The notes beneath the pieces are model-generated. The model searched no databases, was not told the origin of the DNA, and saw only the letters and a program-made list of their open reading frames with translations. A DNA stretch of 64,000 bases from Roseovarius sp. ZX-A-9 (GTDB lineage: Bacteria > Pseudomonadota > Alphaproteobacteria > Rhodobacterales > Rhodobacteraceae): assembly GCF_028369135.1 (NCBI RefSeq), contig NZ_JAPWHW010000008.1, positions 1 through 64,000 on the forward strand, given 5' to 3'. Below are positions 7,078 through 49,085 of this stretch, one piece after another. Positions within the stretch are counted from its first letter, which is position 1; each line of letters opens with the position of its first letter. The translations under genes were made by a program, and so were the position numbers.

Positions 7078-8349
7078 GTGACCGCTACCGAGCCGCCCTC
7101 ACACTGGAAAATTTCCACCGAAGAACCTGCCGTGACCGGAGAATACGCCGGTGACACAACGACCGAACTGGCCATTGTCGGTGGTGGCTTTACCGGCCTT
7201 TCCGCAGCCCTGCATGCCACACAGGCCGGAATGGCCTGCCATGTTCTGGAGGCGCAGGCCATCGGCTATGGCGGTTCGGGCCGCAATGTCGGGCTGGTGA
7301 ATGCCGGGCTTTGGCTGCCGCCACAGGTCTGCCGCGCCCGGTTGGGCGAAGAGACAGGCGCGCGGCTGGTGCAAATGCTGGGCGAGGCGCCGAACATCGT
7401 GTTCAACCTGATCGAGCGCCACCAGATGCGCTGCGAGGCAACGCGCAAGGGCACGATCCACGCCGCCCGAAGCGCGGGCCACATGGCGGATCTGAGCGCC
7501 CGCGCCGAGGAATGGCAACGTCTCGGCGCCCCGGTGACCCTGCTGTCGCGCGACGAAGCCATTGCGAGGATCGGCACGCCCGCCGTGCATGGCGGATTGT
7601 TCGATGCCCGCGCCGGAACCATCAATCCGCTGGGATACGCGCGTGGGTTGGCCCGCGCAGCGCGCGCGGCCGGAGCCGTGATCAGCACCGGCACGCCGGT
7701 CTTGGCGCTCGACCGCGACGGCGATCACTGGCGGCTGCAAACACCTTCCGGCACGCTGCGCGCACGCCATGTTCTGCTGTGCACGAATGCCTATACCGAC
7801 GCGCTCTGGCCCGGGCTCCGCCAATGCTTCTCGCCGATCCGGTACTTTCAGCTTGTGAGCGCCCCGATGGGCGCACAGGCGGCACATATCCTGCCCGGTG
7901 GCGAAGGGATGTGGGACACCGGGACGATCATGTTCTCGCTCAGGCGCGACGCCAAGGGATGCATCTGTGTCGGCTCCATGGGGTCGGTCATCGGCGGCGC
8001 GAGCGGGTTGTCGCACCGCTGGGCCACGCGCCAGATGCGTCGGCTGTTTCCCGAACTCGGTCAGGTGCGCTTCGAGACGGCCTGGCACGGACGGATTGCA
8101 ATGACCCCCGATCACCTGCCGCGAATCTACCGACTGGCGGAGAACCTCTATGCGCCGATTGGCTATAACGGGCGCGGGATCGGCCCCGGTACAGTCTTCG
8201 GGGCCGCATTGGCGGCATCGTTGACCGGCGGCGGGCCGGACGCGCTGCCCCTGCCCGCGACGACACCGCAAAAGGTGCGTGCCGGTACGCTCAAAAGCAT
8301 GGCATTCGAGGCAGCATTCACTGCAAATCAGCTCTACCGCAGCCTCTGA
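7078..8349 (+). CDS. FAD-dependent amine oxidoreductase (DAO family, PuuB-like)
   Basis: A 423-residue flavoenzyme of the D-amino-acid-oxidase fold. The N-terminal dinucleotide-binding motif is AIVGGGFTGLSAA near residues 29-41, followed by GYGGSGRNVG near 63-72, the hallmark of the PuuB/gamma-glutamylputrescine-oxidase-like branch. The C-terminal FAD-binding GYNGRGIGPGT lies near 362. It starts at GTG 7078 with a GAAGGA ribosome site about ten bases upstream. It probably oxidises a secondary or primary amine. The four amine/amide enzymes downstream suggest a related substrate, but the 150-base gap means it need not be co-transcribed with them. Confidence 0.8.
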   Translation: MTATEPPSHWKISTEEPAVTGEYAGDTTTELAIVGGGFTGLSAALHATQAGMACHVLEAQAIGYGGSGRNVGLVNAGLWLPPQVCRARLGEETGARLVQMLGEAPNIVFNLIERHQMRCEATRKGTIHAARSAGHMADLSARAEEWQRLGAPVTLLSRDEAIARIGTPAVHGGLFDARAGTINPLGYARGLARAARAAGAVISTGTPVLALDRDGDHWRLQTPSGTLRARHVLLCTNAYTDALWPGLRQCFSPIRYFQLVSAPMGAQAAHILPGGEGMWDTGTIMFSLRRDAKGCICVGSMGSVIGGASGLSHRWATRQMRRLFPELGQVRFETAWHGRIAMTPDHLPRIYRLAENLYAPIGYNGRGIGPGTVFGAALAASLTGGGPDALPLPATTPQKVRAGTLKSMAFEAAFTANQLYRSL

Positions 8350-8498: not shown

Positions 8499-9533
8499 AT
8501 GACGCCTTTCGCCGTCGCCGGGGTGCAGATGTACGTGAATGCATTGCAACCGAATGTGGACGGGATGATCCACCGGATCGATATACTGATGGGCCGCTTC
8601 CCCTGGACACAGATGGTTCTGTTTTCGGAGCTTGCGCCATACGGGCCACTGCCGAAATTTTCGCTGCCACTGCGCAACGAAACGCTCGACCGGTTCCGCG
8701 AAGCCGCGCTCAAGCACAATATCTGGCTGATACCAGGCTCGATGTTCGAGACGGCCGAAGACGGGCGCATCTACAACACCTCCACCGTGATCAACCCGGC
8801 CGGAGAAATCGTCGCCCACTATCGCAAGATGTTCCCGTTCCGCCCTTACGAGGTCGGGATCGAGGCCGGAACCGAGTTCTGCATCTTCGACGTGCCCGAG
8901 GTGGGCCGCTTCGGGCTGTCGATCTGCTATGATATCTGGTTCCCCGAAACCACCCGCCAGTTGACAAGCCAGGGGGTCGAGGTGCTTCTGCATCCGGTGC
9001 TGACCGGCACCACCGACCGCGACGCGGAACTGTCCATCGCCCGCGCCACCGCGGCACAGTTCCAGTGCTACGTGGTGGATGTGAACGGGCTTGGAGCGGG
9101 CGGCGTCGGCAAATCCTGCGTCATCGACCCATCGGCCACCGTGCTGCACCAATCGGCGGGCCAGGAGGACATGTTCCCGATCGAGATGGACCTTGACCAC
9201 GTGCGGCGTCAGCGCGAAGCGGGCCTGAAGGGGCTGGGACAAGTGCTCAAGAGCTTCCGCGACCGTTCGGTCGATTTCTCGGTCTATGACCGCACCAGTG
9301 GCACCGATGCCTATCTGCACTCGCTCGGCCCGCTGGAGATTCCCAAACAGGGCTCGCGCGCTGGTATGCGTGGCGAAGAAGGGCAGGACGTGCTGCCGGC
9401 GCCGCATACAGATGGCTCGATAGCCAGCGTCACTGAAGCCGCAAAAGGGGTGCCGAACGCCAACGCGCCGCTACAGGAAACCACGGAACAATCAACACAC
9501 GACGAGAGGGAGACAGCGCCCTACACCGTCTGA
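8499..9533 (+). CDS. Carbon-nitrogen hydrolase (nitrilase superfamily amidase)
   Basis: A 344-residue member of the nitrilase superfamily with a complete Glu44 (FSELAPYG), Lys110 (HYRKMFPF), Cys143 (SICYDIWFPE) triad, so a C-N amide or carbamoyl hydrolase is expected rather than a pseudoenzyme. After the catalytic domain, from about residue 290, there is a low-complexity polar tail of roughly 50 residues. ATG 8499 is chosen for the AGGAG ribosome site nine bases upstream. It is the first gene of the decarboxylase/ATP-grasp/C45 set. The substrate is unknown and it differs clearly from the AguB in this window. Confidence 0.85.
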   Translation: MTPFAVAGVQMYVNALQPNVDGMIHRIDILMGRFPWTQMVLFSELAPYGPLPKFSLPLRNETLDRFREAALKHNIWLIPGSMFETAEDGRIYNTSTVINPAGEIVAHYRKMFPFRPYEVGIEAGTEFCIFDVPEVGRFGLSICYDIWFPETTRQLTSQGVEVLLHPVLTGTTDRDAELSIARATAAQFQCYVVDVNGLGAGGVGKSCVIDPSATVLHQSAGQEDMFPIEMDLDHVRRQREAGLKGLGQVLKSFRDRSVDFSVYDRTSGTDAYLHSLGPLEIPKQGSRAGMRGEEGQDVLPAPHTDGSIASVTEAAKGVPNANAPLQETTEQSTHDERETAPYTV

Positions 9534-9550
9534 CATAATAAATAAAAATA

Positions 9551-9603
9551 GCGGCCGATCATCGACTGCCTGCGCCAAGACATGTGCAATTTAGGTCGGC
9601 TGC
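9551..9603 (+). promoter_or_regulatory. Leader hairpin before the decarboxylase gene
   Basis: In the 91-base gap before the decarboxylase, GCGGCCGA (9551-9558) can pair with TCGGCTGC (9596-9603), 8 bp with one G-U, closing a 37-base loop. An A/T-rich stretch just upstream could hold a -10 element. The stem ends about 20 bases before the start codon. It could be a leader that controls decarboxylase expression, or chance. Confidence 0.3.
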
Positions 9604-9624
9604 ATAACAGCGGGGACTAAATCT

Positions 9625-12384
9625 ATGCAATCAATGGGTGACTACTATTCAGCCGTCCAACTGCGCTCGGACCGTTGGAGCCAGTTGCGCGAGGCCACCG
9701 ATGCACTGTCACGCGCCCCCGACGGGCGCAACGCAGAGGCCAATCTCGAAAAAATCACAGAATTGTTTAGTTCCCTGTCCCTGATCGAGGCTTACTGGGC
9801 CTTTCCCGGGGTACAGGCGTTTGAATCGCTGCGCCGCCAATTTGACCACGGCAATTATGCCGACCTAGCGTTTTCCGTCCAACGCATTACCCGTGCATTG
9901 ACGACCGGGGCCTATCGTCGGCGGCACATCCCGCTTGAACGTGACAGCGCCGACCAGGACGACCACGAGGACGAAGCGATCCAGTCGCTGGAAGCGCGTG
10001 CGCTCAGCAAGCCCTATTTCGAAGTGATGGTCGTCGATAACCTGAACGAGCATCAGGAACGCTGGATGAAGTCCAACTTTGCCCAGATGCGGCGGACCGG
10101 AGACCCGTTTCATTACGAAACAGTCGTGGTGCCCAGCCTGCAGGACGCGTTGATCGGTGTGCTCTTCAACCACAACATTCAGGCCATCGTGGTGCGTCCC
10201 GGCTTGATTTTGGAATCCAAGGTCGAACTGTCCATCCTGACCCGCTACCTGAATCGTGCGGGCGGGATCGAGGCGCTCGAAAACCTGGCGCCACAGAACT
10301 ATGGCCCCGAACTGTGTCGCATGATCGCGAAGGTGAGGCCCGAGCTGGACGCCTACCTGATCACGGAACGGTCGGTCGAGGATATCGCGGGGCTGGACCT
10401 CGGGATCTGCCGCCGGGTGTTCTATAATCAGGAAGATTTCCTGGAACTGCACCTGAATATCCTGCGCGGGGTGCAGGCCCGCTACAAGACACCGTTTTTC
10501 ACCGCGCTGGTCGAGTATTCCAAGCAGCCCACCGGCGTCTTTCACGCAATGCCGATCAGCCGCGGCAAGTCGATCAATCGCAGTCACTGGATTCAGGACA
10601 TGGGCGCGTTCTACGGGCCCAACATCTTCATGGCCGAAACCTCGGCCACATCCGGCGGGCTGGACAGCCTGCTGGAGCCGCATGGCCCGATCAAGGAGGC
10701 ACAGCGGCTGGCCAGCCGCGCCTTTGGCTCGAAACAGACCTATTTTGCCACCAACGGCACCTCCACCTGCAACAAGGTCGTCGTGCAAGCCCTTGTAAGG
10801 CCAGGGGATATTGTGTTGGTGGACCGCGATTGCCACAAATCCCACCATTACGGCATGGTGCTGGCAGGCGCACAGGTCTGTTATCTGGATAGCTATCCGC
10901 TGAACGAATATTCGATGTATGGCGCGGTGCCGCTGCGCGAGATCAAGCACCAGCTTCTGGCGCTCAAAGCGGCGGGCAAGCTGGATCGCGTGCGCATGCT
11001 GCTGCTGACCAACTGCACCTTTGACGGCATCGTCTACAATGTCGAACGGGTGATGGAGGAATGCCTCGCGATCAAGCCGGACCTTGTGTTCCTGTGGGAC
11101 GAAGCGTGGTTCGCCTTTGCCCGGTTCGGCCCCACCTATCGGCAGCGGACCGCGATGAACGCCGCCAACACGCTGCGCGAACGTCTGAGAAGCGATGCGC
11201 ATGCTGCAGCCTATGCCAAGCAGCAGGCAATGCTTGAGGGCGCCGATGACGAGGCGCTACTGAACACACGTCTGATCCCGCCGCCCGATGCGCGGGTCCG
11301 CGTCTATGCGACGCAATCGACCCACAAGACGCTGACCGCGCTGCGCCAGGGCTCGATGATTCACGTCAACGACCAGGATTTCAAAGGCGAAGTCGAGGCC
11401 AGCTTCCACGAAGCCTACATGACCCATACCTCGACCTCGCCCAACTACCAGATCATCGCGTCGCTCGATGTCGGGCGACGGCAGGTTGAACTGGAAGGCT
11501 TTGAATTCGTTCAGCGCCAGGTCGAGGCGGCCATGTCGATGCGCCGTGCGATTTCGACCCACCCCTTGTTGCAGAAGTACTTCAAGGTACTGACGGCGGG
11601 CGACATGATCCCCGAATGTCACCGCGAAAGCGGCGTGCAGAGCTACTACTCTCCCGATCAGGGCTGGACCGATATCTGGGATTGCTGGGAAAAGGACGAA
11701 TTCGTTCTGGATGCCACCCGCGTCACGCTGGCCGTGGGCGGAACGGGCTGGGATGGCGATACGTTCAAGACAGAAATCCTGATGGACAAATACGGCATCC
11801 AGATCAACAAGACGTCGCGCAACACGGTTCTTTTCATGACCAATATCGGCACCACGCGCAGTTCGGTTGCCTACCTGATCGAAGTGCTGGTGGAGATTGC
11901 CAAGGAGCTGGACGAGTTGATCGACGACGCGTCGATGATGGAGCGGCGCGGCTTTGAAAAGCGCGTGGCCAACCTGATGGAAGACCTGCCGCCCCTGCCC
12001 GATTTCAGCCGGTTCCACGACGCGTTCCGCACGGATAATCTGACATCGGAAGGTGATATCAGGTCGGCGTTCTTCCTGTCATATGATGAACGCAACTGTG
12101 ACTATCTCGAACTGGACGGATCGCTCAAGGACGCGATGGAAACCGGCGAGGATGTCGTGTCGGCCTCGTTCATCATCCCCTACCCGCCCGGTTTTCCGAT
12201 CCTGGTGCCCGGACAGGTGGTCAGCCAAGGTATCCTGGCCTTCATGCGGGCGCTCGATGTGAGCGAAATCCACGGTTACCGGCCTGATCTGGGATTGCGC
12301 GTGTTTACCAGTGAAGCGTTGAAGCAACAGGCCAAGACCAACGCCGCCCGGCTGAAGCTGAACGTGCAGCGGCAAAAAACGTAA
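9625..12384 (+). CDS. Orn/Lys/Arg-type PLP decarboxylase with long N-terminal wing domain
   Basis: A 919-residue PLP enzyme of the bacterial ornithine/lysine/arginine decarboxylase fold. Residues 1 to about 300 form a divergent N-terminal region with a receiver-like wing (FEVMVVDNLNEHQERW ... IQAIVVRPGL). The PLP core follows: FATNGTSTCNKVV, DRDCHKSHHYG, FLWDEAWFAFA and the Schiff-base Lys568 in QSTHKTLTALRQGSMIH. The C-terminal domain (YPPGFPILVPGQVV) is intact. It would decarboxylate a basic amino acid or a derivative to an amine. It is longer than CadA/SpeF-type enzymes (about 710-755). Its tight grouping with ATP-grasp and C45 genes suggests a dedicated amine supply. Substrate unknown. 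Confidence 0.87.
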   Translation: MQSMGDYYSAVQLRSDRWSQLREATDALSRAPDGRNAEANLEKITELFSSLSLIEAYWAFPGVQAFESLRRQFDHGNYADLAFSVQRITRALTTGAYRRRHIPLERDSADQDDHEDEAIQSLEARALSKPYFEVMVVDNLNEHQERWMKSNFAQMRRTGDPFHYETVVVPSLQDALIGVLFNHNIQAIVVRPGLILESKVELSILTRYLNRAGGIEALENLAPQNYGPELCRMIAKVRPELDAYLITERSVEDIAGLDLGICRRVFYNQEDFLELHLNILRGVQARYKTPFFTALVEYSKQPTGVFHAMPISRGKSINRSHWIQDMGAFYGPNIFMAETSATSGGLDSLLEPHGPIKEAQRLASRAFGSKQTYFATNGTSTCNKVVVQALVRPGDIVLVDRDCHKSHHYGMVLAGAQVCYLDSYPLNEYSMYGAVPLREIKHQLLALKAAGKLDRVRMLLLTNCTFDGIVYNVERVMEECLAIKPDLVFLWDEAWFAFARFGPTYRQRTAMNAANTLRERLRSDAHAAAYAKQQAMLEGADDEALLNTRLIPPPDARVRVYATQSTHKTLTALRQGSMIHVNDQDFKGEVEASFHEAYMTHTSTSPNYQIIASLDVGRRQVELEGFEFVQRQVEAAMSMRRAISTHPLLQKYFKVLTAGDMIPECHRESGVQSYYSPDQGWTDIWDCWEKDEFVLDATRVTLAVGGTGWDGDTFKTEILMDKYGIQINKTSRNTVLFMTNIGTTRSSVAYLIEVLVEIAKELDELIDDASMMERRGFEKRVANLMEDLPPLPDFSRFHDAFRTDNLTSEGDIRSAFFLSYDERNCDYLELDGSLKDAMETGEDVVSASFIIPYPPGFPILVPGQVVSQGILAFMRALDVSEIHGYRPDLGLRVFTSEALKQQAKTNAARLKLNVQRQKT

Positions 12385-12433
12385 GATTACCGATAAAACC
12401 GGCAAAAAAGAAAAGTCCAAGGGAGGACGACAA

Positions 12434-13918
12434 ATGGCCAAAAAGGCAGCCAAGACAACCAAGAAAGCGGACCTGGGGAACATCTCGGAGATCCGCCGGC
12501 ACTTTCACCGCAACGAAGACCCGATCTATTTCATCTCGGCCACCAACTTCAACCTGTTGGGCCTTGATGAGTGGTGCAAGAACTTCAAGTATATCTGCTA
12601 TATCGACTGCTATGACGGCAAGCATCCGAATGTGTTCTGCCCGTCTGAAGTCCCGCATGCGGAGTTTCAGTCGATCGAGGACATCAACAACTACCTGTTG
12701 CAGCACAAGGAAGTGATCGACCTGATCAAGCGCCGTGGCGGCAAACCGAAATTCGTGTTCCTGATGTTCGACGAGGAAACCGAACGCCTGTCCAAGGAAT
12801 TGGGTGCCGAAATCTGGTTCCCCAAAGCCAAGCTGCGTCAGGCAATGGACAACAAGATCGAAACCGTTCGGATCGGCAACAAGGCCGGCGTGCCGTCCGT
12901 GCCCAATACACTGTCAGAGGTCAAAAGCTACGACCACCTGCGCGAGGTCTGCGAAAAGGCGGGCATCGGCCATGACCTGGTGTTGCAGTCGGCCTTTGGC
13001 GACAGCGGCCACACGACGTTCTTTATCAAGTCCGAGGCCGATTTCCGCCGCCATGAGCATGAGATCGTCGGTGAAGGCGAGATCAAGATCATGAAGCGGA
13101 TCGACTGCCGTGGCAGCGCCATTGAGGCCTGCGCCACCAAGGAAGGCACCATCGTCGGCCCGCTGATGACAGAGCTTGTCGGCTTCAAGGAGCTGACCCC
13201 CTATCGTGGCGGTTGGTGCGGGAACGAGATTTTCAGCACCGCCTTTCCACCGAAAGTCCGCCAGAAGGCGCGCGATCTGACGTTCAAGTTTGGCGAGCAG
13301 TTGCGGAAGGAAGGCTATCGCGGCTATTTCGAGCTGGATTTCCTGATCGACAAGAAAACCGGCGATATCTGGCTGGGCGAGTTGAACCCGCGCATCACCG
13401 GCGCCAGTTCGATGACCAACCACGCCGCGTTTGCCCATGCCGACGCGCCGCTGTTCCTGTTCCACCTGCTGGAATTCTCGAAGAAGAAATTCAGCCTCGA
13501 CGTCGAGGAGCTGAATGCCCGCTGGGCCGATCCCAAGATGATCGACGGCTGGAGCCAGATGGTCATCAAGCATACCGATGACACGGTCGATATCGTCACC
13601 GAGGTGCCCGAGACCGGCATCTACCGGATGAACGAGGATGGCAGCATCAACTTCAACCGCTTTGACTATCACCGGCGCGCGGTCGAGAACGAGAACGAGG
13701 CGTTCTTCCTGCGCATCCTGCAACCGGGTGACTACCGTTACGAAGGCGCCGATATCGGCATTCTGGTGACGCGCGGGCGCTCCATGACCCCCGGCTTCCA
13801 GCTCAATGAGCGCGGCAAGCGGTGGATTCACGGCATCAAGCAGGGCGTCTCTGCGCGCCCCATGCCCACTGCAGAGGCCGGTCCGGCGCTGGCGGACCCT
13901 GCCTTCAAGATCATGTAG
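12434..13918 (+). CDS. ATP-grasp ligase (carboxylate-amine ligase-like)
   Basis: A 494-residue protein whose middle third is an ATP-grasp domain. KLRQAMDNK near residue 140 and the acidic Mg-binding strand FELDFLIDKKTGDIWLGELNPRITG at about 303-327 are typical. Such enzymes activate a carboxylate as acyl phosphate and join it to an amine. The N-terminus is Lys/Ala-rich. About 130 residues follow the ATP-grasp core. It may be labelled biotin carboxylase by similarity, but no carboxylase partner or biotin carrier lies nearby. It starts after a GGGAGG ribosome site, 49 bases after the decarboxylase, whose amine product could be its substrate (inference). Confidence 0.82.
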   Translation: MAKKAAKTTKKADLGNISEIRRHFHRNEDPIYFISATNFNLLGLDEWCKNFKYICYIDCYDGKHPNVFCPSEVPHAEFQSIEDINNYLLQHKEVIDLIKRRGGKPKFVFLMFDEETERLSKELGAEIWFPKAKLRQAMDNKIETVRIGNKAGVPSVPNTLSEVKSYDHLREVCEKAGIGHDLVLQSAFGDSGHTTFFIKSEADFRRHEHEIVGEGEIKIMKRIDCRGSAIEACATKEGTIVGPLMTELVGFKELTPYRGGWCGNEIFSTAFPPKVRQKARDLTFKFGEQLRKEGYRGYFELDFLIDKKTGDIWLGELNPRITGASSMTNHAAFAHADAPLFLFHLLEFSKKKFSLDVEELNARWADPKMIDGWSQMVIKHTDDTVDIVTEVPETGIYRMNEDGSINFNRFDYHRRAVENENEAFFLRILQPGDYRYEGADIGILVTRGRSMTPGFQLNERGKRWIHGIKQGVSARPMPTAEAGPALADPAFKIM

Positions 13919-13926
13919 CCGTCTGA

Positions 13927-14916
13927 ATGAAACTGATCTGGCGCGCCATATCCGAGGATGAACCCGGCCCCAAGTGGGCCGGGCTCTTCCACGAGTACTG
14001 GCCTGATTACCACCGCTGGTGGTCCCGCGAAGGCCCCGAGGCGCGCCCCGGCTTCCTGGACAGCCACAAGGCATTGCGCGCCCATATGCCCGAGCTTCTG
14101 CCGCTCTTCGATCAGCTGTGCGAGCTGGCGGGCGGCACGGATCATGCGGCGCGGTTCCTTAGCTTTTATTGCCCGCCGCCCTACCTGTCCTCGTGTTCAC
14201 AGGCGATCTGGCCCGGCGAAGAGCCGGTGATGGTGCGAAATTACGACTACTCTCCCAAGGCGTTCGACAGCCTGACCCTACGCACGAAATGGCAAGGACG
14301 CACGGTGATGGGCACCTCCGACGGTCTCTGGGGGCTGGTGGACGGGATCAACGATGCGGGGCTTGCCGTCTCGCTTACCTTTGGCGGACGGCGCGTCGTG
14401 GGCGACGGGTTCGGTGTGCCGCTGATCCTGCGCTATGTGCTGCAAACCTGCGAGACCACGGCACAGGCCGCCAAGGTGTTGGCCCGCGTGCCCACGCATA
14501 TGAGCTACAACGTGACCGTTGTGGACGCCAAACGTAAATATCTGACCGCGCTCATGGCACCTGACCGCAAGGCAGTGATCACGCATCAGGCGGTGGCCAC
14601 CAACCACCAGGAGCGCGTCGAATGGGCGTCCCACGCCCGCTTTACCGCCACAGTCGAACGCGAGCGGTTCCTGCTGCAACGCCTGACGCTGCATGTGGAA
14701 CCGGAAGAGAAGTTCATCAACGCCTTCCTGCGCCCGCCACTCTACTCCACCCGGTTCAACCAGGGGTTCGGCACGCTCTACACGGCGATCTACCGCCCGC
14801 AGCGGCTGCAAATGGAATTACGCTGGCCACGCGCCCGCTGGCCCTTTGACCTGAACGATTTCAAAGAGGATTTGCGGGTGATCTATACGCCCGAGGGCGA
14901 ACCGGACGCAGGATAA
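13927..14916 (+). CDS. C45 family Ntn hydrolase (acyl-CoA:6-APA acyltransferase-like)
   Basis: A 329-residue member of the C45 peptidase / penicillin-acyltransferase superfamily. These are made as precursors and cut autocatalytically just before a cysteine that becomes the N-terminal nucleophile. The likely residue is Cys90 in YLSSCSQAIWPG, followed by the family VMVRNYDYSP stretch and the core TSDGLWGLVDGINDAGLAVSL. Family members hydrolyse or transfer amide-linked acyl groups, for example beta-alanyl-dopamine hydrolysis in insects. The start lies 8 bases after the ATP-grasp stop, so the two are surely co-transcribed. That pairing suggests one makes and the other moves or removes an amide. 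Confidence 0.82.
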   Translation: MKLIWRAISEDEPGPKWAGLFHEYWPDYHRWWSREGPEARPGFLDSHKALRAHMPELLPLFDQLCELAGGTDHAARFLSFYCPPPYLSSCSQAIWPGEEPVMVRNYDYSPKAFDSLTLRTKWQGRTVMGTSDGLWGLVDGINDAGLAVSLTFGGRRVVGDGFGVPLILRYVLQTCETTAQAAKVLARVPTHMSYNVTVVDAKRKYLTALMAPDRKAVITHQAVATNHQERVEWASHARFTATVERERFLLQRLTLHVEPEEKFINAFLRPPLYSTRFNQGFGTLYTAIYRPQRLQMELRWPRARWPFDLNDFKEDLRVIYTPEGEPDAG

Positions 14917-17018: not shown

Positions 17019-19442
17019 ATGGCACAGCATTCGGCGAAACATCTGATCATCGGCGGGGGCATCATCGGATGCAGCACCGCCTATCACCTAGCCAAAGGCG
17101 GCGAGCGTGATGTCGTGCTGCTGGAACGCGCCGCGCTGACCGAGGGTGCCACATGGCACGCGGCGGGCCTTGTCGGGCAGTTGCGCTCGTCACGCAACAC
17201 CACCCGTATGCTGAAACGCTCGGTCGCGCTCTATGATGCGCTGGAAGCCGAGACCGGCATGGCATTCGACTGGAAAAAGGTGGGCTCTCTGCGTCTGGCC
17301 GCCACAAAGGAACGCATGTTGGAGGCGCAACGCCTGACCACCATGGCCCAGAGCTTTGATCTGGAGATGCACATGATCACCCCCGCCGAGGCCAAGGCGC
17401 TGTTTCCCTATATCGACGAGACCGGTGTCGAGGGCGCGGCCTTCATCCCGTCGGACGGGCACGTGGATCCGGCGGGCCTTTGCCTGGCCATTGCAGCCGG
17501 AGCGCGGCTGCACGGGGCGGATATTCGGCAGGGCGTCGAAGTGACGGATTTCGAGATCAAGAACGGGCGGATCACTCGCGTGATGACCACGCAGGGCGAC
17601 TATGAGGCGGAAAACGTCATTCTGGCCGCCGGCATGTGGTCGCGCGAGCTGGGCGCAAAGCTGGGCCTGCGGGTGCCAGCCTGCGCGGTGGAGCACCAGT
17701 ATATCGTGACCGAGCCGCTGCCCGATCCTGATCTGGTGCGCAGCCTGCCCTCGCTGCGCGATCCCGAGAGGCTGGTCTATTACAAACCCGACGCGGGTGG
17801 GCGCATGGTGATCGGCGGCTACGAGGATGACACGCTTCCGTTCGGTTCGTCCGGTATTCCCGGACAGTTCGTGCGGCAGTTGCTGCCCGACAACCTCGAC
17901 CGCTTCGCGCCGCTGGCCGAACTGGCCGGGCGAGTCACGCCTGTCGTGAACGAGGTCGGCATCAGGCAGGTGATCAACGGGCCGATTCCCTACTCTGCCG
18001 ATGGCGATTTTGTCATGGGCTGGGCGCCGGATCTCAAGAACCTGATGATGGCCACCGGGTTCCTCTATGGAATCGCCGCTGGTGGCGGTGCGGGCGAAAT
18101 GATCGCGGAATGGATCACCGAAGGGCGGCCGAGCCTTGATCTCTGGCCGCTGGATGTGCGGCGGTTCGGACCGCATCACGGCACCCGCGCCTTCATGTAT
18201 CCCCGCGCGGTCGAACATTACGCCCACCACTACAAGATGCGCTACCCGGGCGCCGAGGCGCAGAGCGCCCGCGGCTTGCGTCGCTCGCCATTCTATGAAT
18301 CGCTGAAGGCGCGCGGGGCGGTATATGGGTCGAAAAACGGCTGGGAACGCCCGCTATGGTTCGCCCCCGAAGGCACGCCACCGGTCGATCAGCTCGATTT
18401 CCTCGACCCCGGCTGGCACGCCTTTGCAGCGGAGGAACATCGCGCGGTGCGGACCAGTGCGGCATTGATCGACCAGAGCAGCTTTGCCAAGTTCGAGATG
18501 ATCGGCCCCGGCACGCTGGATACGCTGCAACGGCTTGCGGCCTGCAACATGGATAAACCCGTAGGTTCAGTGATTTACGCGCAGTTCTGCAATCCGCATG
18601 GCGGGATCGAATCGGATCTGACCATCACCCGGCTGGGGCAGGATCATTTCTATATCGTCACCGGCGCGGGCTTTGGCACCCATGATGCCGACTGGATCAG
18701 ACGCCACCTGCCGGAGACCGGCACGGTGCAACTGATCGAAGTCACGTCGGCCCGCGCCGTTCTGAACATCTGTGGCCCCAAGGCGCGCGATATCCTGCAA
18801 GCGGTTTGCGAAGAGGACATAAGCAACGACGCCTTTCCCTTTGCCACAGCACGGGAAATTGCCATCGGCGCGGCGCCGGTACGGGCGGTGCGTATCGGAT
18901 TTGTCGGCGAGTTGGGCTGGGAGTTGCACATTCCAACCGAATTCGGCGCCTATGTGATGGAGCAACTGCGCGACGCAGGCGCGGACCACGGGCTGCGCGA
19001 TGTCGGCTACCGTGCCATCGATAGTCTGCGCATGGAAAAGGGTTATCTTTACTGGTCCGGGGACATCTCACCCGACTATACCCCGATCGAGGCCGGGCTG
19101 GGATTCCGCGTACATCTCAAATCGGGCGGTGATTTCATCGGGCGCGAGGTTCTGGCAAAGCAGAAGAAAAACGGCCCGGAACGCAAGCTCTGCACTTTCA
19201 CCAGCACCGCGCGGCTGCCGCTATTTGGCGGCGAAACCATTCTGCACGATGGCACCCCTGTCTCCCTCGTGACATCCTCTGGATTTGGTCATAGCGTGGG
19301 CCGCATGATCATGCACGCCTACCTGCCCCGCGCGCTCTGTGACCGGTCGGACTTCGAAATCGAGGTCTTTGGCCAGCGTCATGGCATAAGCCGCGTCGAT
19401 GGTCCGCTCTATGATCCCGAAAACCTCCGGCTGAAATCCTGA
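17019..19442 (+). CDS. FAD-dependent N-demethylase, dimethylglycine/sarcosine dehydrogenase type, with GcvT domain (first copy)
   Basis: An 807-residue two-domain enzyme. Residues 1 to about 400 are a DAO-fold FAD domain (LIIGGGIIGCSTAYHL) with the histidine expected to hold FAD covalently (His47 in GATWHAAGL). Residues about 430-800 are an aminomethyltransferase-like GcvT domain (RIGFVGELGWELHIP, FIGREVL). The family oxidises an N-methyl group and passes the formaldehyde equivalent to tetrahydrofolate. The exact amine is not decided by sequence. The regulator upstream and the kinase-like gene 10 bases downstream form a unit repeated in mirror order at 21-30 kb. Confidence 0.9.
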   Translation: MAQHSAKHLIIGGGIIGCSTAYHLAKGGERDVVLLERAALTEGATWHAAGLVGQLRSSRNTTRMLKRSVALYDALEAETGMAFDWKKVGSLRLAATKERMLEAQRLTTMAQSFDLEMHMITPAEAKALFPYIDETGVEGAAFIPSDGHVDPAGLCLAIAAGARLHGADIRQGVEVTDFEIKNGRITRVMTTQGDYEAENVILAAGMWSRELGAKLGLRVPACAVEHQYIVTEPLPDPDLVRSLPSLRDPERLVYYKPDAGGRMVIGGYEDDTLPFGSSGIPGQFVRQLLPDNLDRFAPLAELAGRVTPVVNEVGIRQVINGPIPYSADGDFVMGWAPDLKNLMMATGFLYGIAAGGGAGEMIAEWITEGRPSLDLWPLDVRRFGPHHGTRAFMYPRAVEHYAHHYKMRYPGAEAQSARGLRRSPFYESLKARGAVYGSKNGWERPLWFAPEGTPPVDQLDFLDPGWHAFAAEEHRAVRTSAALIDQSSFAKFEMIGPGTLDTLQRLAACNMDKPVGSVIYAQFCNPHGGIESDLTITRLGQDHFYIVTGAGFGTHDADWIRRHLPETGTVQLIEVTSARAVLNICGPKARDILQAVCEEDISNDAFPFATAREIAIGAAPVRAVRIGFVGELGWELHIPTEFGAYVMEQLRDAGADHGLRDVGYRAIDSLRMEKGYLYWSGDISPDYTPIEAGLGFRVHLKSGGDFIGREVLAKQKKNGPERKLCTFTSTARLPLFGGETILHDGTPVSLVTSSGFGHSVGRMIMHAYLPRALCDRSDFEIEVFGQRHGISRVDGPLYDPENLRLKS

Positions 19443-26278: not shown

Positions 26279-27171
26279 CACCTGAGCAGGCACTTGATAT
26301 CGCACGCGGTTTGAGCTGCTGGAGCGCGCCCAGCAATGTCGCACCGCTGGATGGCGGCATAACCAATCACAATATCCGCGTGACCGACGGGGGCCGCGAT
26401 TACGTGGTGCGGCTGGGCGAGGATATTCCCGAGCATGGCATCATGCGCTGGCACGAACTGGCACTCAGCCGCGCCGCCGAGGCCGCCGGACTTTCACCCG
26501 CGGTGCACCATGCCGAACCCGGCGTGCTGGTGCTCGACTTCGTCCCCGGCACCGCGCTGACCGAGAAGGATCTGCATGATCCGGACACGCTGATGGCCGC
26601 CACGGAGCTGATCGCGCGCCTTCATTGCAGGATGCCCGGCCACCTGCGCGGTCCGATCCTCAGCTTCTGGGTGTTCCATATCCTGCGCGACTATGCGGCC
26701 ACACTGACGGAACGCGGCTCGCGCCATGCAGCCGCCCTGCCCGCCCTGCTGGAGCAGGCGGCGCTGCTGGAGCGCGCCGTGGGCCATGTGAAACTGGTGC
26801 TGGGCCATAACGACCTGCTGCCCGCCAACCTGCTGCGCGCGGATGATGGCGCGCTCTGGGTCATTGATTGGGAATATGGCGGTTTCAATTCGCCACTATT
26901 CGATCTGGGCGGGCTGGCCAGCAATTGCGCCCTGCCCCGCGACGCCGAAGAGGCGATGCTGACCCACTATTATCGCGCCCCGCCAGACGAGACGCTGTGG
27001 CGACGCTACGACGCGATGAAATGCGCCTCGCTCTTGCGCGAAACCATGTGGTCGATGATCTCCGAACTGACCTCGACGCTAGATTTCGACTACGCCGAAT
27101 ACACCGATAAAAACCTCGACCGATATGCAGGCGCATTTGCCGCCTTCACTGCCCAAGGATGCCAGCCATGA
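26275..27171 (+). CDS. Choline/ethanolamine kinase-like phosphotransferase (second copy)
   Basis: A 298-residue APH/choline-kinase-fold protein with catalytic loop LGHNDLLPANLLRADDGALWVIDWEYGG near residues 180-205 and a nucleotide-loop region near the start (APLDGGITNHNIRV). It overlaps both neighbours by four bases (ATGA at 26275 and at 27168), so translation is coupled from permease through demethylase. It is a paralogue of the 19453 protein. Coupling of a kinase-like gene to an importer suggests that the imported amine alcohol, or a derivative, is phosphorylated (inference). Confidence 0.83.
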   Translation: MTPEQALDIARGLSCWSAPSNVAPLDGGITNHNIRVTDGGRDYVVRLGEDIPEHGIMRWHELALSRAAEAAGLSPAVHHAEPGVLVLDFVPGTALTEKDLHDPDTLMAATELIARLHCRMPGHLRGPILSFWVFHILRDYAATLTERGSRHAAALPALLEQAALLERAVGHVKLVLGHNDLLPANLLRADDGALWVIDWEYGGFNSPLFDLGGLASNCALPRDAEEAMLTHYYRAPPDETLWRRYDAMKCASLLRETMWSMISELTSTLDFDYAEYTDKNLDRYAGAFAAFTAQGCQP

Positions 27172-29612
27172 CTGATTTTCCAACCTCGGCCCAAGCCGTC
27201 ATCGTAGGCGGCGGTATCGTCGGCTGCTCTACCGCCTATCACCTCTCGCGCCTTGGCTGGGATGTGGTGCTGCTTGAGCGCAAGAAGCTGACATCCGGCA
27301 CCACCTTTCACGCCGCGGGGCTGGTCGGGCAATTGAGGTCGTCTGCCAACATAACCCAATTGCTGGGGTATTCGGTCGAACTCTACAAGAAACTGGAGGC
27401 CGAGACCGGACAGGCGACCGGCTGGAAGATGAATGGCGGTCTGCGCCTTGCCTGCAACGAAGAGCGCTGGACCGAGGTCAAGCGACAAGCCACGACCGCC
27501 CATTCCTTCGGGCTGGAAATGGAACTTCTGACGCCGAAAGAGGCGCAGGATCTGTGGCCGCTGATGCAGGTGGATGATGTGGTCGGCGCGGCCTTCATGC
27601 CCACGGACGGACAGGCCAACCCGTCGGACATCACCCTGTCGCTGGCCAAGGGCGCACGCATGGGCGGCGCGCAGATATTCGAGGATACCAAGGTCACGAA
27701 GGTGATCGTCGAAAAGGGCGTGATCAAGGGCGTCGAGACCGAAAAGGGTCGCATTGATTGCGGCGTGGTCATTGCCTGTTGCGGGCAATGGACCCGCGCC
27801 TTTGCCAAGACCGTCGGTGTGAACGTGCCCTTGGTGTCGGTCGAGCACCAGTACATGGTGACCGAGCCGATCGACGGTGTCACATCCGACATGCCCACGC
27901 TGCGCGATCCTGACCGCCTGACCTACTACAAGGAAGAAGTTGGCGGGCTGGTCATGGGCGGCTACGAGAAGAACCCGATCATGTGGGCGCAGGACGGCAT
28001 CCCCAAGGGTTTCCACTATACCCTGCTCGACAGTAATTTCGATCATTTCGAACAGCTAATGGAGCTGTCCTTGGGCCGCGTACCGGCGCTGGAGACCGCC
28101 GGGATCAAGACGCTGACCAACGGGCCAGAGAGTTTCACCCCCGATGGCAATTTCATCCTCGGCGAGGCACCGGAGCTGCGCAATTTCTACGTCGGCGCGG
28201 GATTCAACGCCTTCGGCATCGCAGCAGGTGGCGGAGCCGGCATGGCGCTGGCCGAATGGGTCGCCAAGGCCGCGCCGCCCTACGACCTGTGGTCGGTCGA
28301 TATTCGCCGCTTCGGCGCGCCGCATTTCGATACCGACTGGATCCGTGCCCGCACCTACGAGGCCTATGGCAAGCATTACACGATGGCCTGGCCCAGCGAG
28401 GAGCATGACAGCGGCCGTCCCTGCCGCAAATCGCCGCTTTATGAAATCCTCAAGGCCCAAGGTGCGGTATTCGGAGAGAAGCTCGGCTGGGAACGCCCCA
28501 ACTGGTACGCCGACACCGAGGCGGGCGAGGAACAGCACGATATCTACACGTTCGAGCGTCCGAACTGGCACAAGGCCGTCGCGCGAGAGCACAAGGCCGC
28601 GCGCGAGGCGGCGGTGCTGTTTGACCAGACTTCCTTTGCCAAATTCGTGCTCAAGGGCCCGGATGCCGAGGACGCGCTGAGCTGGATCGCGGCCAATGAC
28701 GTGACCGGCCCCATCGGCACGCTGACCTATACCCAGATGCTGAACGATGCGGGCGGGATCGAATGCGACCTGACCGTCGTGCGCCGCGCCGAGGATGAAT
28801 ATTACATCGTCACCGGCACCGGCTTTGCCACACATGATTTCGACCATATCGCGCGCAACATCCCCGAGGGCATGAACGCCCAGCTTTTCGATGTGACATC
28901 GGCCTACGCGGTGCTGTCGCTTTTTGGGCCGCGAGCGCGCGACATCCTGCAATCGGTGACACGCAGCGATGTCAGCAACGAGGCGTTTCCCTTTGGCACC
29001 GCGCAGACCATTGGCATTGCCGGGTGCCCGGTGAACGCACTGCGCGTGACCTATGTCGGCGAGTTGGGCTGGGAATTGCATCTGCCGGTCGAATACGCCG
29101 TGACCGTCTACGAAGCACTGCATCGCGCCGGGGCCGAACACGGGCTGCGCAACGCTGGCTACCGCGCGCTGGAAACCTTGCGACTAGAAAAGGGATATCG
29201 CGCATGGTCGTCCGATATCGGCCCTGACCACACCCCGGACGAGGCCGGGCTGGGCTGGGCGGTGAAGCTGAAGAAGAACACCGATTTCAAGGGCCGCGCG
29301 GCGGTCGAGGCGCAGCGCGCCCGCGGTGTGACCAAGCGCATGACCACCTTTACCGCCGCCCCGGACGTGATCCTGTCGGGCCGCGAAACCATCTACCGCA
29401 ACGGGGTGCGCGTCGGCTGGCTCAGCTCTGCGGGCTACGGCCACGCGCTGGGCCAATCCATCGGCATGGGCTATGTGCGCAACCCCGAGGGCGTCAGCCG
29501 CGACTATGTTCTGGAAGGCACCTACGAATTGGAAGTGGCCACGGAACGGGTGCCGGCCACGGCACATCTGACGCCGCTCTACGACCCGAAAATGGCAAAG
29601 GTGAAGTGCTGA
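27168..29612 (+). CDS. FAD-dependent N-demethylase with GcvT domain (second copy)
   Basis: An 814-residue paralogue of the 17019 enzyme with the same two domains. The FAD domain has VIVGGGIVGCSTAYHL and the predicted covalent-FAD His48 in GTTFHAAGLVGQLRSS. The GcvT domain (about 430-805) has RVTYVGELGWELHLP. ATG 27168 is chosen over 27159 because it overlaps the kinase stop and has an AAGGA site at good spacing. It is the last gene of the importer operon. The copies have diverged enough to suspect different N-methyl substrates or sequential steps. Confidence 0.91.
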   Translation: MTDFPTSAQAVIVGGGIVGCSTAYHLSRLGWDVVLLERKKLTSGTTFHAAGLVGQLRSSANITQLLGYSVELYKKLEAETGQATGWKMNGGLRLACNEERWTEVKRQATTAHSFGLEMELLTPKEAQDLWPLMQVDDVVGAAFMPTDGQANPSDITLSLAKGARMGGAQIFEDTKVTKVIVEKGVIKGVETEKGRIDCGVVIACCGQWTRAFAKTVGVNVPLVSVEHQYMVTEPIDGVTSDMPTLRDPDRLTYYKEEVGGLVMGGYEKNPIMWAQDGIPKGFHYTLLDSNFDHFEQLMELSLGRVPALETAGIKTLTNGPESFTPDGNFILGEAPELRNFYVGAGFNAFGIAAGGGAGMALAEWVAKAAPPYDLWSVDIRRFGAPHFDTDWIRARTYEAYGKHYTMAWPSEEHDSGRPCRKSPLYEILKAQGAVFGEKLGWERPNWYADTEAGEEQHDIYTFERPNWHKAVAREHKAAREAAVLFDQTSFAKFVLKGPDAEDALSWIAANDVTGPIGTLTYTQMLNDAGGIECDLTVVRRAEDEYYIVTGTGFATHDFDHIARNIPEGMNAQLFDVTSAYAVLSLFGPRARDILQSVTRSDVSNEAFPFGTAQTIGIAGCPVNALRVTYVGELGWELHLPVEYAVTVYEALHRAGAEHGLRNAGYRALETLRLEKGYRAWSSDIGPDHTPDEAGLGWAVKLKKNTDFKGRAAVEAQRARGVTKRMTTFTAAPDVILSGRETIYRNGVRVGWLSSAGYGHALGQSIGMGYVRNPEGVSRDYVLEGTYELEVATERVPATAHLTPLYDPKMAKVKC

Positions 29613-48539: not shown

Positions 48540-48567
48540 TTGCAACTGCGAAGAGGACGCCTATATT
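48540..48567 (+). promoter_or_regulatory. Probable promoter of the tmRNA gene
   Basis: TTGCAA (48540-48545) and TATATT (48562-48567) are separated by 16 bases, a good sigma-70-like pair. Transcription would start near 48574, just before the acceptor half of the tmRNA. Confidence 0.55.
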
Positions 48568-48573
48568 CATCTT

Positions 48574-48886
48574 GTCCCCTCGGGGACTATGGACATAAAC
48601 GCGCTCGTAATAAGCGGATCGGACCCGGGGGCGGTACCCGGCGACTCCACCAATATCCCTTCATTTGGGGGACAATGGGGTCGAAACAGGATCGACGAAC
48701 GTCTAAAGGGGTTATGCTTTGTCTCGGCTGTCTGCCACCGTTATCGGCGAAACAAGTACAATTGCAAATGACAATCGTGCTCCAGTAGCGATGGCCGCGT
48801 AAGCGGTCGGAGAGACTGAAACTTAAGTCCTTGCGCCTAGCCGCGTAAGGCGGGGTTCGCAGGCACCTGGCAACAGAAGCCTGCAC
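48574..48886 (+). ncRNA. ssrA: Transfer-messenger RNA, circularly permuted two-piece form
   Basis: This RNA rescues stalled ribosomes and adds a degradation tag. The acceptor half comes first and ends in CGACTCCACCA (48642-48652). A 24-base loop follows, which would be removed, and the coding half then starts with GGGGTCG (48677-48683), which pairs with CGACTCC to form the 7-bp acceptor stem of the tRNA-like domain. The stretch GGTCGAAACAGGATCGACG matches the conserved tmRNA 5' end. The tag frame opens at GCA 48764. GCAGGC (48859-48864) and GCCTGC (48879-48884), with CCCCC and TTTT after them, close the gene. This permuted order is the alphaproteobacterial form. The exact processed ends are estimates. 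Confidence 0.93.
48764..48802 (+). other. tmRNA proteolysis-tag reading frame (ANDNRAPVAMAA)
   Basis: The resume codon GCA at 48764 opens a 12-residue frame, Ala-Asn-Asp-Asn-Arg-Ala-Pro-Val-Ala-Met-Ala-Ala, ended by TAA at 48800. The AND(N) start and the small hydrophobic A-A end are the SspB- and ClpX-recognised parts of known alphaproteobacterial tags. Confidence 0.92.
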
Positions 48887-49085
48887 TTTCCCCCTTTTCC
48901 GATAGCACTGGCGGTTTTTTGCCAGTTGCCGCGATCAGCCCGCATGCTCCATGGCCTTAGCGGCAAGCCGGATGTAACCCCGCGCCGAGCCAACAAACAG
49001 CACGCTGTCACCGGGATTTTCTTTTGTTTCACCCTGCTTGACGCTAGGGTCAACCGATACCGTATCCAATTCAGGGGTTTGGCTT

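What the first reader, a model, noticed from the sequence alone, without database searches (positions are those of the whole stretch)
8499..14916. Four-enzyme amide/amine set: C-N hydrolase, long PLP decarboxylase, ATP-grasp ligase, C45 Ntn acyltransferase
Four co-directional genes with complete active sites (Glu44-Lys110-Cys143; Lys568; ATP-grasp acidic strand; Cys90) combine decarboxylation, ATP-driven amide formation and two kinds of amide cleavage or transfer. I know of no described pathway with this set. A reasonable model is that the decarboxylase makes an amine, the ATP-grasp enzyme joins it to an acid, the C45 enzyme transfers or trims the acyl group after self-cleavage, and the nitrilase-like enzyme removes a protecting amide. 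It could make a conjugated polyamine, an amine-protected amino acid or a small osmolyte, or break one down.
Basis: partly seen in the sequence, partly recalled or inferred. Interest (0 to 1): 0.8.

Follow-up and report, generated by a model that had tools for sequence, protein, structure and literature searches.

The report
Four-gene amide module, probably GABA-linked
Four neighbouring genes for a decarboxylase, an amide-forming ligase and two amide-cutting enzymes are inherited as one unit in marine and other bacteria, and they probably handle a GABA-like amino acid through a temporary amide, a pathway for which no description was found.

Summary
NIT (8499-9533), DC (9625-12384), ATPG (12434-13918) and C45 (13927-14916) are intact, co-directional and 91, 49 and 8 bp apart. 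They behave as one unit: at the E-values used, the same 33 of 149 genomes of the window's order carry all four and the other 116 none. They lie together in 60 of 61 related loci with full flanks. ATPG, labelled 'biotin carboxylase', lacks the bicarbonate-site motif and looks like an amide ligase. DC lacks the glutamates shared by E. coli lysine and ornithine decarboxylases and has gained arginines; a paralogue sits in an aspartate decarboxylase/antiporter operon. An acidic or amide substrate therefore fits better than Arg/Lys/Orn. The core is NIT+ATPG+C45, joined either to DC (often with a GABA-type transaminase and TRAP transporter) or to an arginine route ending in GABA. Elsewhere the set sits inside an ectoine-degradation operon, or behind nif-type promoters on rhizobial plasmids. 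Best model: a GABA/omega-amino-acid amide ligation-hydrolysis module; acyl partner and order of steps are unknown. Ten searches of an open-access library found no description.

The parts
8499..9533 (+). NIT: nitrilase-superfamily C-N hydrolase (Glu44, Lys110, Cys143); alternative start 8454
   Evidence: triad invariant in 108 of 108 loci
9625..12384 (+). DC: long-form (919 aa) OKR_DC_1 PLP decarboxylase, Lys568; relative of Rv2531c (PDB 9N0N/9N0O), whose activity is reported as unknown
12434..13918 (+). ATPG: ATP-grasp enzyme of the NF005096 type, labelled 'biotin carboxylase' but with GELNPRITGAS where carboxylases have ExNPRIQVEH; probable amide ligase
13927..14916 (+). C45: Ntn-type acyltransferase/amide hydrolase proenzyme, predicted nucleophile Cys90; nearest fold isopenicillin N acyltransferase

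Best explanation
The four genes are one metabolic module with a core of three enzymes: NIT, ATPG and C45. They act on an omega-amino acid of the GABA type (GABA, or beta-alanine). ATPG uses ATP to join it by an amide bond to an unknown partner. C45, after cutting itself before Cys90, cleaves or transfers that amide, and NIT hydrolyses a second, terminal amide or carbamoyl group. In this genome the omega-amino acid is supplied by the long-form decarboxylase from an acidic or amide amino acid (Glu, Gln or Asp) rather than from Arg, Lys or Orn. Where a class III transaminase lies beside the set it drains the product to a semialdehyde. The logic (join, process, un-join) is like the Puu gamma-glutamyl-putrescine route and butirosin assembly (both recalled), with different enzymes. 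Shown: the genes, active-site residues, co-inheritance, alternative feeders and neighbours. Inferred: substrate class of DC, ligase (not carboxylase) chemistry of ATPG, self-cleavage of C45, GABA as the common node. Not determined: the acyl partner, the order of steps, and whether the net flow is catabolic or makes a stored amide.
For: Unit: identical 33 of 149 genomes for all four genes; 60 of 61 full-flank loci; distance-matrix r 0.947-0.965 over 108 loci. Core triad: ATPG-C45-NIT with no long DC hit in the stretch fetched, in the own genome (L033) and in G110 (L038). Shinella-type clusters (L155, L157, L159, L197, L199, L202) hold ATPG and C45 with a NIT homologue (58% identical to the window's in L155), an ornithine-racemase-like enzyme (below cut-off), DadA, AruI, ALDH and an agmatinase-family enzyme, read as an arginine-to-GABA route. 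GABA link: class III transaminase at 50% identity or more in 35 of 61 full-flank loci (names from one GabT, 551 bits over a 507 cut-off, and one PRK07483 protein); PuuR-like regulator (132 bits, below its 211 cut-off) in 13 of 61; GabT beside the set in L194-L196 of other families. Acidic substrate: TAXI-TRAP in 38 of 61; a sodium:dicarboxylate symporter beside the Cupriavidus copy; Glu/Leu/Phe/Val-type dehydrogenase within about 7 kb of 4 of 5 rhizobial copies; a DC paralogue (48-49% identical) in an operon with aspartate 4-decarboxylase and two aspartate-alanine antiporters; residue changes in DC. Ligase. C45 fold.
Against: No activity is known to me for any of the four. The role of CadA Glu526/SpeF Glu532 in binding the distal amine is recalled, and AdiA has Thr571 there, so arginine is not excluded. 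In family f189 the set sits in an ectoine operon, where diaminobutyrate, a basic amino acid, is an equally natural DC substrate. In the window's own order, DoeA above its curated cut-off is commoner in set-bearing genomes (16 of 33 versus 25 of 116, p=0.004, not corrected for kinship). If DC plus GabT simply made and removed GABA, the ligase and two amidases would be unexplained. No TAXI-TRAP, class III transaminase or PuuR was noted beside the set in the window, and 15 of 61 full-flank loci have none of them. I computed no background rate for neighbours. The ATPG model failed (pLDDT 43.9).
Confidence: 0.38

Rival explanations
1. Polyamine/diamine route: DC decarboxylates Arg, Orn, Lys or, in the ectoine operon, diaminobutyrate to a diamine; ATPG acylates it; a transaminase and dehydrogenase oxidise the free end; C45 removes the acyl group to release GABA or beta-alanine.
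For: OKR_DC_1 family; PuuR-like regulator and GabT in some loci; in 20 of 22 fetched f189 loci the set lies between doeABX and doeC, where diaminobutyrate is made; DoeA above cut-off in 16 of 33 set-bearing versus 25 of 116 other genomes of the order; arginine genes in Shinella-type clusters.
Against: The conserved Glu is absent at two motif positions and Arg is gained in 108 of 108 DCs; a paralogue lies in an aspartate operon; Shinella-type clusters show no long DC; 4 of 33 set-bearing genomes had no DoeA match at E<=1e-100.
Confidence: 0.29
2. DC acts on glutamine or on a gamma-glutamyl amide made by ATPG, giving 4-aminobutyramide or a gamma-aminobutyryl amide, which NIT or C45 then hydrolyses to GABA (butirosin-like protection, recalled).
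For: Explains why ligase, decarboxylase and amidases go together; neutral Asn/Gln at the former Glu positions.
Against: No direct evidence; the core triad also occurs without a long DC in the stretch (L033, L038, Shinella type).
Confidence: 0.15
3. The set makes a small exported or stored amide (osmolyte, signal or metal-binding molecule).
For: Location in an ectoine operon, nif-type promoters in rhizobia, an SBP_bac_5 binding protein beside L069 and an annotated oligopeptide transporter beside the Roseobacter ponti copy.
Against: The transporters seen beside the set are of importer types (TRAP, SBP-dependent ABC, SDF), and the transaminases look catabolic.
Confidence: 0.15

Closest known systems
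Puu gamma-glutamyl-putrescine pathway (PuuA-PuuD, PuuR; recalled)
   Same: Ligate, process, hydrolyse logic; GABA end; PuuR-like regulator in 13 of 61 full-flank loci
   Different: PuuA is a glutamine-synthetase-type ligase and PuuD a class I GATase (recalled); here ATP-grasp and C45; the DC pocket does not look basic
Ectoine degradation doeABX-doeCD (PMC3187862, passages)
   Same: In family f189 the module lies between doeX and doeC in 20 of 22 fetched loci
   Different: The published H. elongata cluster runs doeABX-doeCD-eutBC without these genes; 4 of 33 module genomes in the window's order had no DoeA match
Long-form decarboxylase Rv2531c (PDB 9N0N/9N0O)
   Same: Full-length homologue of DC, PGQ motif shared
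   Different: Activity reported as not clarified (PMC12910592, passages); Ile where module DCs have Arg732; whether its genome has the other three genes was not tested
Aspartate 4-decarboxylase/AspT exchange operon
   Same: Holds a DC paralogue (48-49% identical) in G110 and G141
   Different: No ATPG, C45 or NIT hit in those stretches
Biotin carboxylase / pyruvate carboxylase BC domain
   Same: Nearest solved ATP-grasp sequences
   Different: Bicarbonate-site motif absent

Membership tests
Biotin carboxylase (NCBI label of ATPG) | NF005096 model above cut-off | tested here: met
   762.5 vs 684 bits; this names the family, not the reaction
Biotin carboxylase (NCBI label of ATPG) | RIQVEH bicarbonate-site motif (role of its residues recalled) | tested here: not met
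   RITGAS in the window; Thr322 in 106, Gly323 in 108, Ala324 in 105 of 108 loci
Orn/Lys/Arg decarboxylase (OKR_DC_1) | PF01276 match and PLP lysine | tested here: met
   2.4e-76; Lys568 in 108 of 108
Orn/Lys/Arg decarboxylase (OKR_DC_1) | Conserved Glu for a basic side chain (CadA 526/SpeF 532; role recalled) | tested here: not met
   Asn728 in 108 of 108; AdiA has Thr571, so weak evidence against Arg
Orn/Lys/Arg decarboxylase (OKR_DC_1) | Activity on a basic amino acid | not testable with these tools
   needs an assay
C45 Ntn acyltransferase/hydrolase | NF040521 / PF03417 above cut-off, conserved Cys | tested here: met
   176 vs 85 bits and 117.5 vs 23.2 bits; Cys90 in 108 of 108
C45 Ntn acyltransferase/hydrolase | Fold of isopenicillin N acyltransferase | tested here: met
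   top Foldseek hit 2x1c_B, E 3.8e-10, but TM 0.50 and rmsd 11.6; model pLDDT 78.6
C45 Ntn acyltransferase/hydrolase | Autocatalytic cleavage before the Cys | not testable with these tools
   needs purified protein
Nitrilase superfamily | PF00795 and Glu-Lys-Cys triad | tested here: met
Nitrilase superfamily: known amidase subfamily | Any NCBIfam equivalog above cut-off | tested here: not met
   best 67.9 bits against a cut-off of 355
Puu gamma-glutamyl-putrescine pathway | PuuA- and PuuD-type enzymes among the four | tested here: not met
Ectoine degradation operon | doeA beside the set in the window | tested here: not met
   the own-genome DoeA-like matches lie on contigs C11 and C59, not C61

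The most novel reading that the evidence does not exclude
A previously undescribed GABA/omega-amino-acid amide cycle, run by an ATP-grasp ligase, a C45 hydrolase and a nitrilase, travels between bacteria as a cassette fed either by a non-basic OKR-type decarboxylase or by arginine. It has been recruited into ectoine breakdown in one lineage and put under nif-type control in legume symbionts.
Probability: 0.3. Interest if true: 0.75.

Novelty: new variant of a known kind. Interest (0 to 1): 0.6.

Why it matters
Four enzymes with generic or misleading database names ('biotin carboxylase', 'aminotransferase class I/II-fold', 'C45 family peptidase', 'carbon-nitrogen hydrolase') turn out to be one inherited set in about a fifth (33 of 149) of the genomes sampled from the window's order, in an ectoine-using family and on rhizobial plasmids. 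Solving it would correct a widespread mis-annotation, could give a substrate to a decarboxylase family whose solved member has none known, and could reveal a new step in GABA, glutamate or ectoine nitrogen flow in the sea and perhaps in root nodules.

Tried and rejected
AlphaFold2 of ATPG from 26 close relatives failed (pLDDT 43.9), so no fold search was run on it. Ten literature searches listed no paper on the set; most subscription papers and all bioRxiv preprints are missing from that library. I read only passages of PMC12910592, PMC10228743 (a lead on diaminobutyrate in rhizobia, not used as evidence) and PMC3187862. I first took the E. coli PGE glutamate for the recalled Glu532; one search showed it at 663-708, and that SpeF Glu532 is the VVPEK glutamate; both positions are reported. 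The carboxylase reading of ATPG was rejected on the missing motif. The FAD oxidoreductase upstream (7078-8349) was considered as part of the set and dropped: its only match in 80 related loci was 32% identical (L054).

Ectoine link in the window's order: DoeA at E<=1e-100 in 29 of 33 set-bearing versus 82 of 116 other genomes (p=0.07), but above the curated cut-off 16 of 33 versus 25 of 116 (p=0.004); neither is corrected for kinship.

My first sigma-54 scans used wrong spacing or too strict a -12 box and missed sites; one search is the one used, with a pattern loosened after looking at the sequences. Counting rules: ATPG counts use only the 33 strong matches (E<=5e-286); its tally of 125 of 149 at E<=0.001 is mostly weak matches. 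In one search one row (L155:8808-10427, AruI) was included by mistake and ignored. Neighbour counts use tblastn at E<=1e-20 and half coverage, without a background control. Names such as Rhodobacterales for the window's order rest on the named relatives.
Full report
What is there. The window is contig C61 of a 4.69 Mb genome whose nearest named records for ATPG are Roseovarius and other Rhodobacteraceae. The four ORFs are NIT 8499-9533 (or from 8454), DC 9625-12384, ATPG 12434-13918 and C45 13927-14916, all on +, separated by 91, 49 and 8 bp.

One inherited unit. In 149 genomes of the window's order the same 33 carry strong matches to ATPG, DC, NIT and a C45 at 62% identity or more. At the E-values used the other 116 have none, apart from three genomes (G009, G034, G137) with only a 43-47%-identical C45 paralogue. 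Around the ATPG hits of 80 related contigs, 73 show NIT-DC-ATPG-C45 in one order and strand; of the other seven, six are cut by contig ends and L049, which has full flanks, shows no NIT. Of the 61 with full 10 kb flanks, 60 have all four. Pairwise-distance matrices of the four proteins over 108 loci correlate at 0.947-0.965, with 0 of 200 permutations as high for any pair. Gene order changes in more distant lineages (NIT-ATPG-C45-DC; DC-ATPG-C45 without NIT; C45-NIT diverging from DC-ATPG) but the genes stay close. Further afield ATPG was found in 8 of 289 genomes of the class and 11 of 398 of the phylum at E<=1e-30, and in 10 of 199 and 2 of 48 genomes of two other orders at E<=1e-60. A decayed copy exists: G343 has C45 and only residues 309-494 of ATPG.

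The core is three genes. The own genome has a second ATPG-C45-NIT set on contig C31 (44-52% identical) with no long DC hit in the stretch fetched, and so does G110. The L155 NIT homologue is 58% identical to the window's (3e-114). Read with the arginine transaminase-type pathway (recalled), this cluster runs from arginine through 4-guanidinobutyrate to GABA. No long DC hit was found in these stretches.

Neighbours of the DC-bearing form. Within the 61 full-flank loci: TAXI-TRAP transporter 38, class III transaminase 35 (PRK07483 type 26, of which 24 at 60% identity or more; GabT type 15), PuuR-like regulator 13; 15 of 61 have none of these (family names from single members). No background rate was computed. 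GabT also stands beside the set in L194, L195 and L196 from other families (L194 shows no NIT). None of these partners was noted beside the set in the window. A Cupriavidus copy is followed by a sodium:dicarboxylate symporter and a family 3 binding protein (nearest NCBIfam names DctA and GltP, below cut-off). Four of five rhizobial copies have a Glu/Leu/Phe/Val-type dehydrogenase within about 7 kb, and four of five are followed by an ABC transporter and an amidase.

Inside the ectoine operon. In the unnamed family f189, 29 of 121 genomes have ATPG. I fetched 22 of those 29. In 20 of 22 the set lies between doeABX and doeC (in L182 with a gap of roughly 3 kb before doeC); in L176 only the doeC side is adjacent; L186 shows ATPG and C45 but no DC, NIT or doe genes. 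DoeA and DoeB of L148 exceed their NCBIfam cut-offs. In Halomonas elongata the published doe cluster runs doeABX-doeC-doeD-eutBC without such genes (PMC3187862, passages), so the set looks inserted. In the window's own order DoeA is not required (4 of 33 set-bearing genomes without a match at E<=1e-100), but DoeA above its curated cut-off is commoner with the set (16 of 33) than without (25 of 116; p=0.004, not corrected for kinship).

What DC may use. DC is full-length homologous to Rv2531c (PDB 9N0N/9N0O, 838 bits), whose activity a 2026 review says was not clarified (PMC12910592, passages). Aligned with E. coli AdiA, CadA and SpeF, the Glu at CadA 526/SpeF 532 is Asn728; AdiA has Thr571. 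The Glu of the PYPPG...GE motif is Gln864; the Ser six residues after the PLP lysine is Arg574; and Arg732 is new. All four are invariant in 108 of 108 DCs. That Glu532 contacts the distal amine is my recollection. A DC paralogue (48-49% identical) in G110 and G141 lies in G141 with an aspartate 4-decarboxylase (710 bits, cut-off 435) and two aspartate-alanine antiporters (599 and 615 bits, cut-off 547); G110 has homologues of these at 75-82% identity. I infer an acidic or amide substrate at about 0.6, a basic one at about 0.3.

What ATPG may do. It is NF005096, 'biotin carboxylase', and its nearest solved relatives are biotin-dependent carboxylases (E about 1e-6). The carboxylase stretch ExNPRIQVEH reads ELNPRITGAS here, and residues 322-324 are nearly invariant. 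The bicarbonate-site residues of carboxylases (recalled) are therefore missing, while the Glu and Asn of the metal site (recalled) are kept. A carboxylate-amine ligase is the better reading. The structure model failed.

C45 and NIT. C45 exceeds its NCBIfam cut-off, and its model (pLDDT 78.6) has isopenicillin N acyltransferase as best Foldseek hit, with TM 0.50 and a high rmsd. NIT reaches no named amidase subfamily.

Explanation. The two feeders of the core, DC with GabT-type transaminases and the arginine cluster, meet most simply at GABA. I therefore propose that ATPG forms an amide with GABA or a similar omega-amino acid and that C45 and NIT undo it, with DC as the supplier in this genome. 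Substrate class, partner and direction are inferred; only the gene facts are shown. The ectoine operon keeps diaminobutyrate as a live alternative.

Novelty. The enzyme families are known; no description of the pathway was found in ten searches of an open-access library. I rate it a new variant of a known kind (ligate-process-hydrolyse pathways), interest 0.6.

Noticed in passing
L154 9039, L160 8675, L161 9042, L162 9161, L163 9159: All 5 rhizobial plasmid copies examined have a nif-type sigma-54 element TGGCA[CT]-N5-TTG[AC] shortly upstream of the decarboxylase (12 such sites in 254 kb of strand in all); L163 has the same element upstream of nifH. NifA-like sites lie about 100 bp further up in L154, L160 and L161. 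The pattern was loosened after seeing the sequences. The set may be expressed in nodules.
   Followed up: partly
L165 and L166 (G141, G110): A long-form decarboxylase paralogue lies with aspartate 4-decarboxylase and two aspartate-alanine antiporters, suggesting a second amino acid exchange cycle (family scores taken on L165 only).
   Followed up: partly
L033 403-4477 (own genome, contig C31): A second ATPG-C45-NIT set without a long decarboxylase hit, on a contig that also has ABC transporter-like genes.
   Followed up: partly
L198 and L200 (G996, G1064): The Shinella-type genomes carry a second ATPG-C45 pair (45-46% identical to the window's) with no NIT or DC hit in the stretch.
   Followed up: no
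L164, L167, L168, L170: C45 paralogues (43-47% identical) lie in a conserved cluster with a PHB-esterase-like protein and an RHH_8-type regulator; a separate unexplained C45 context.
   Followed up: no
L137 (G343) 9607-11213: Remnant of the set: C45 present, ATPG reduced to residues 309-494, no DC or NIT hit in the stretch; looks like decay by deletion.
   Followed up: no
window 48560-48893: tmRNA gene with tag peptide ANDNRAPVAMAA.
   Followed up: no
window 17019-19442 and 27159-29612: Two related FAD oxidoreductases; the first matches oxidase plus aminomethyltransferase models of the sarcosine oxidase type. Homologues lie near the set in 3 of 80 loci each.
   Followed up: no
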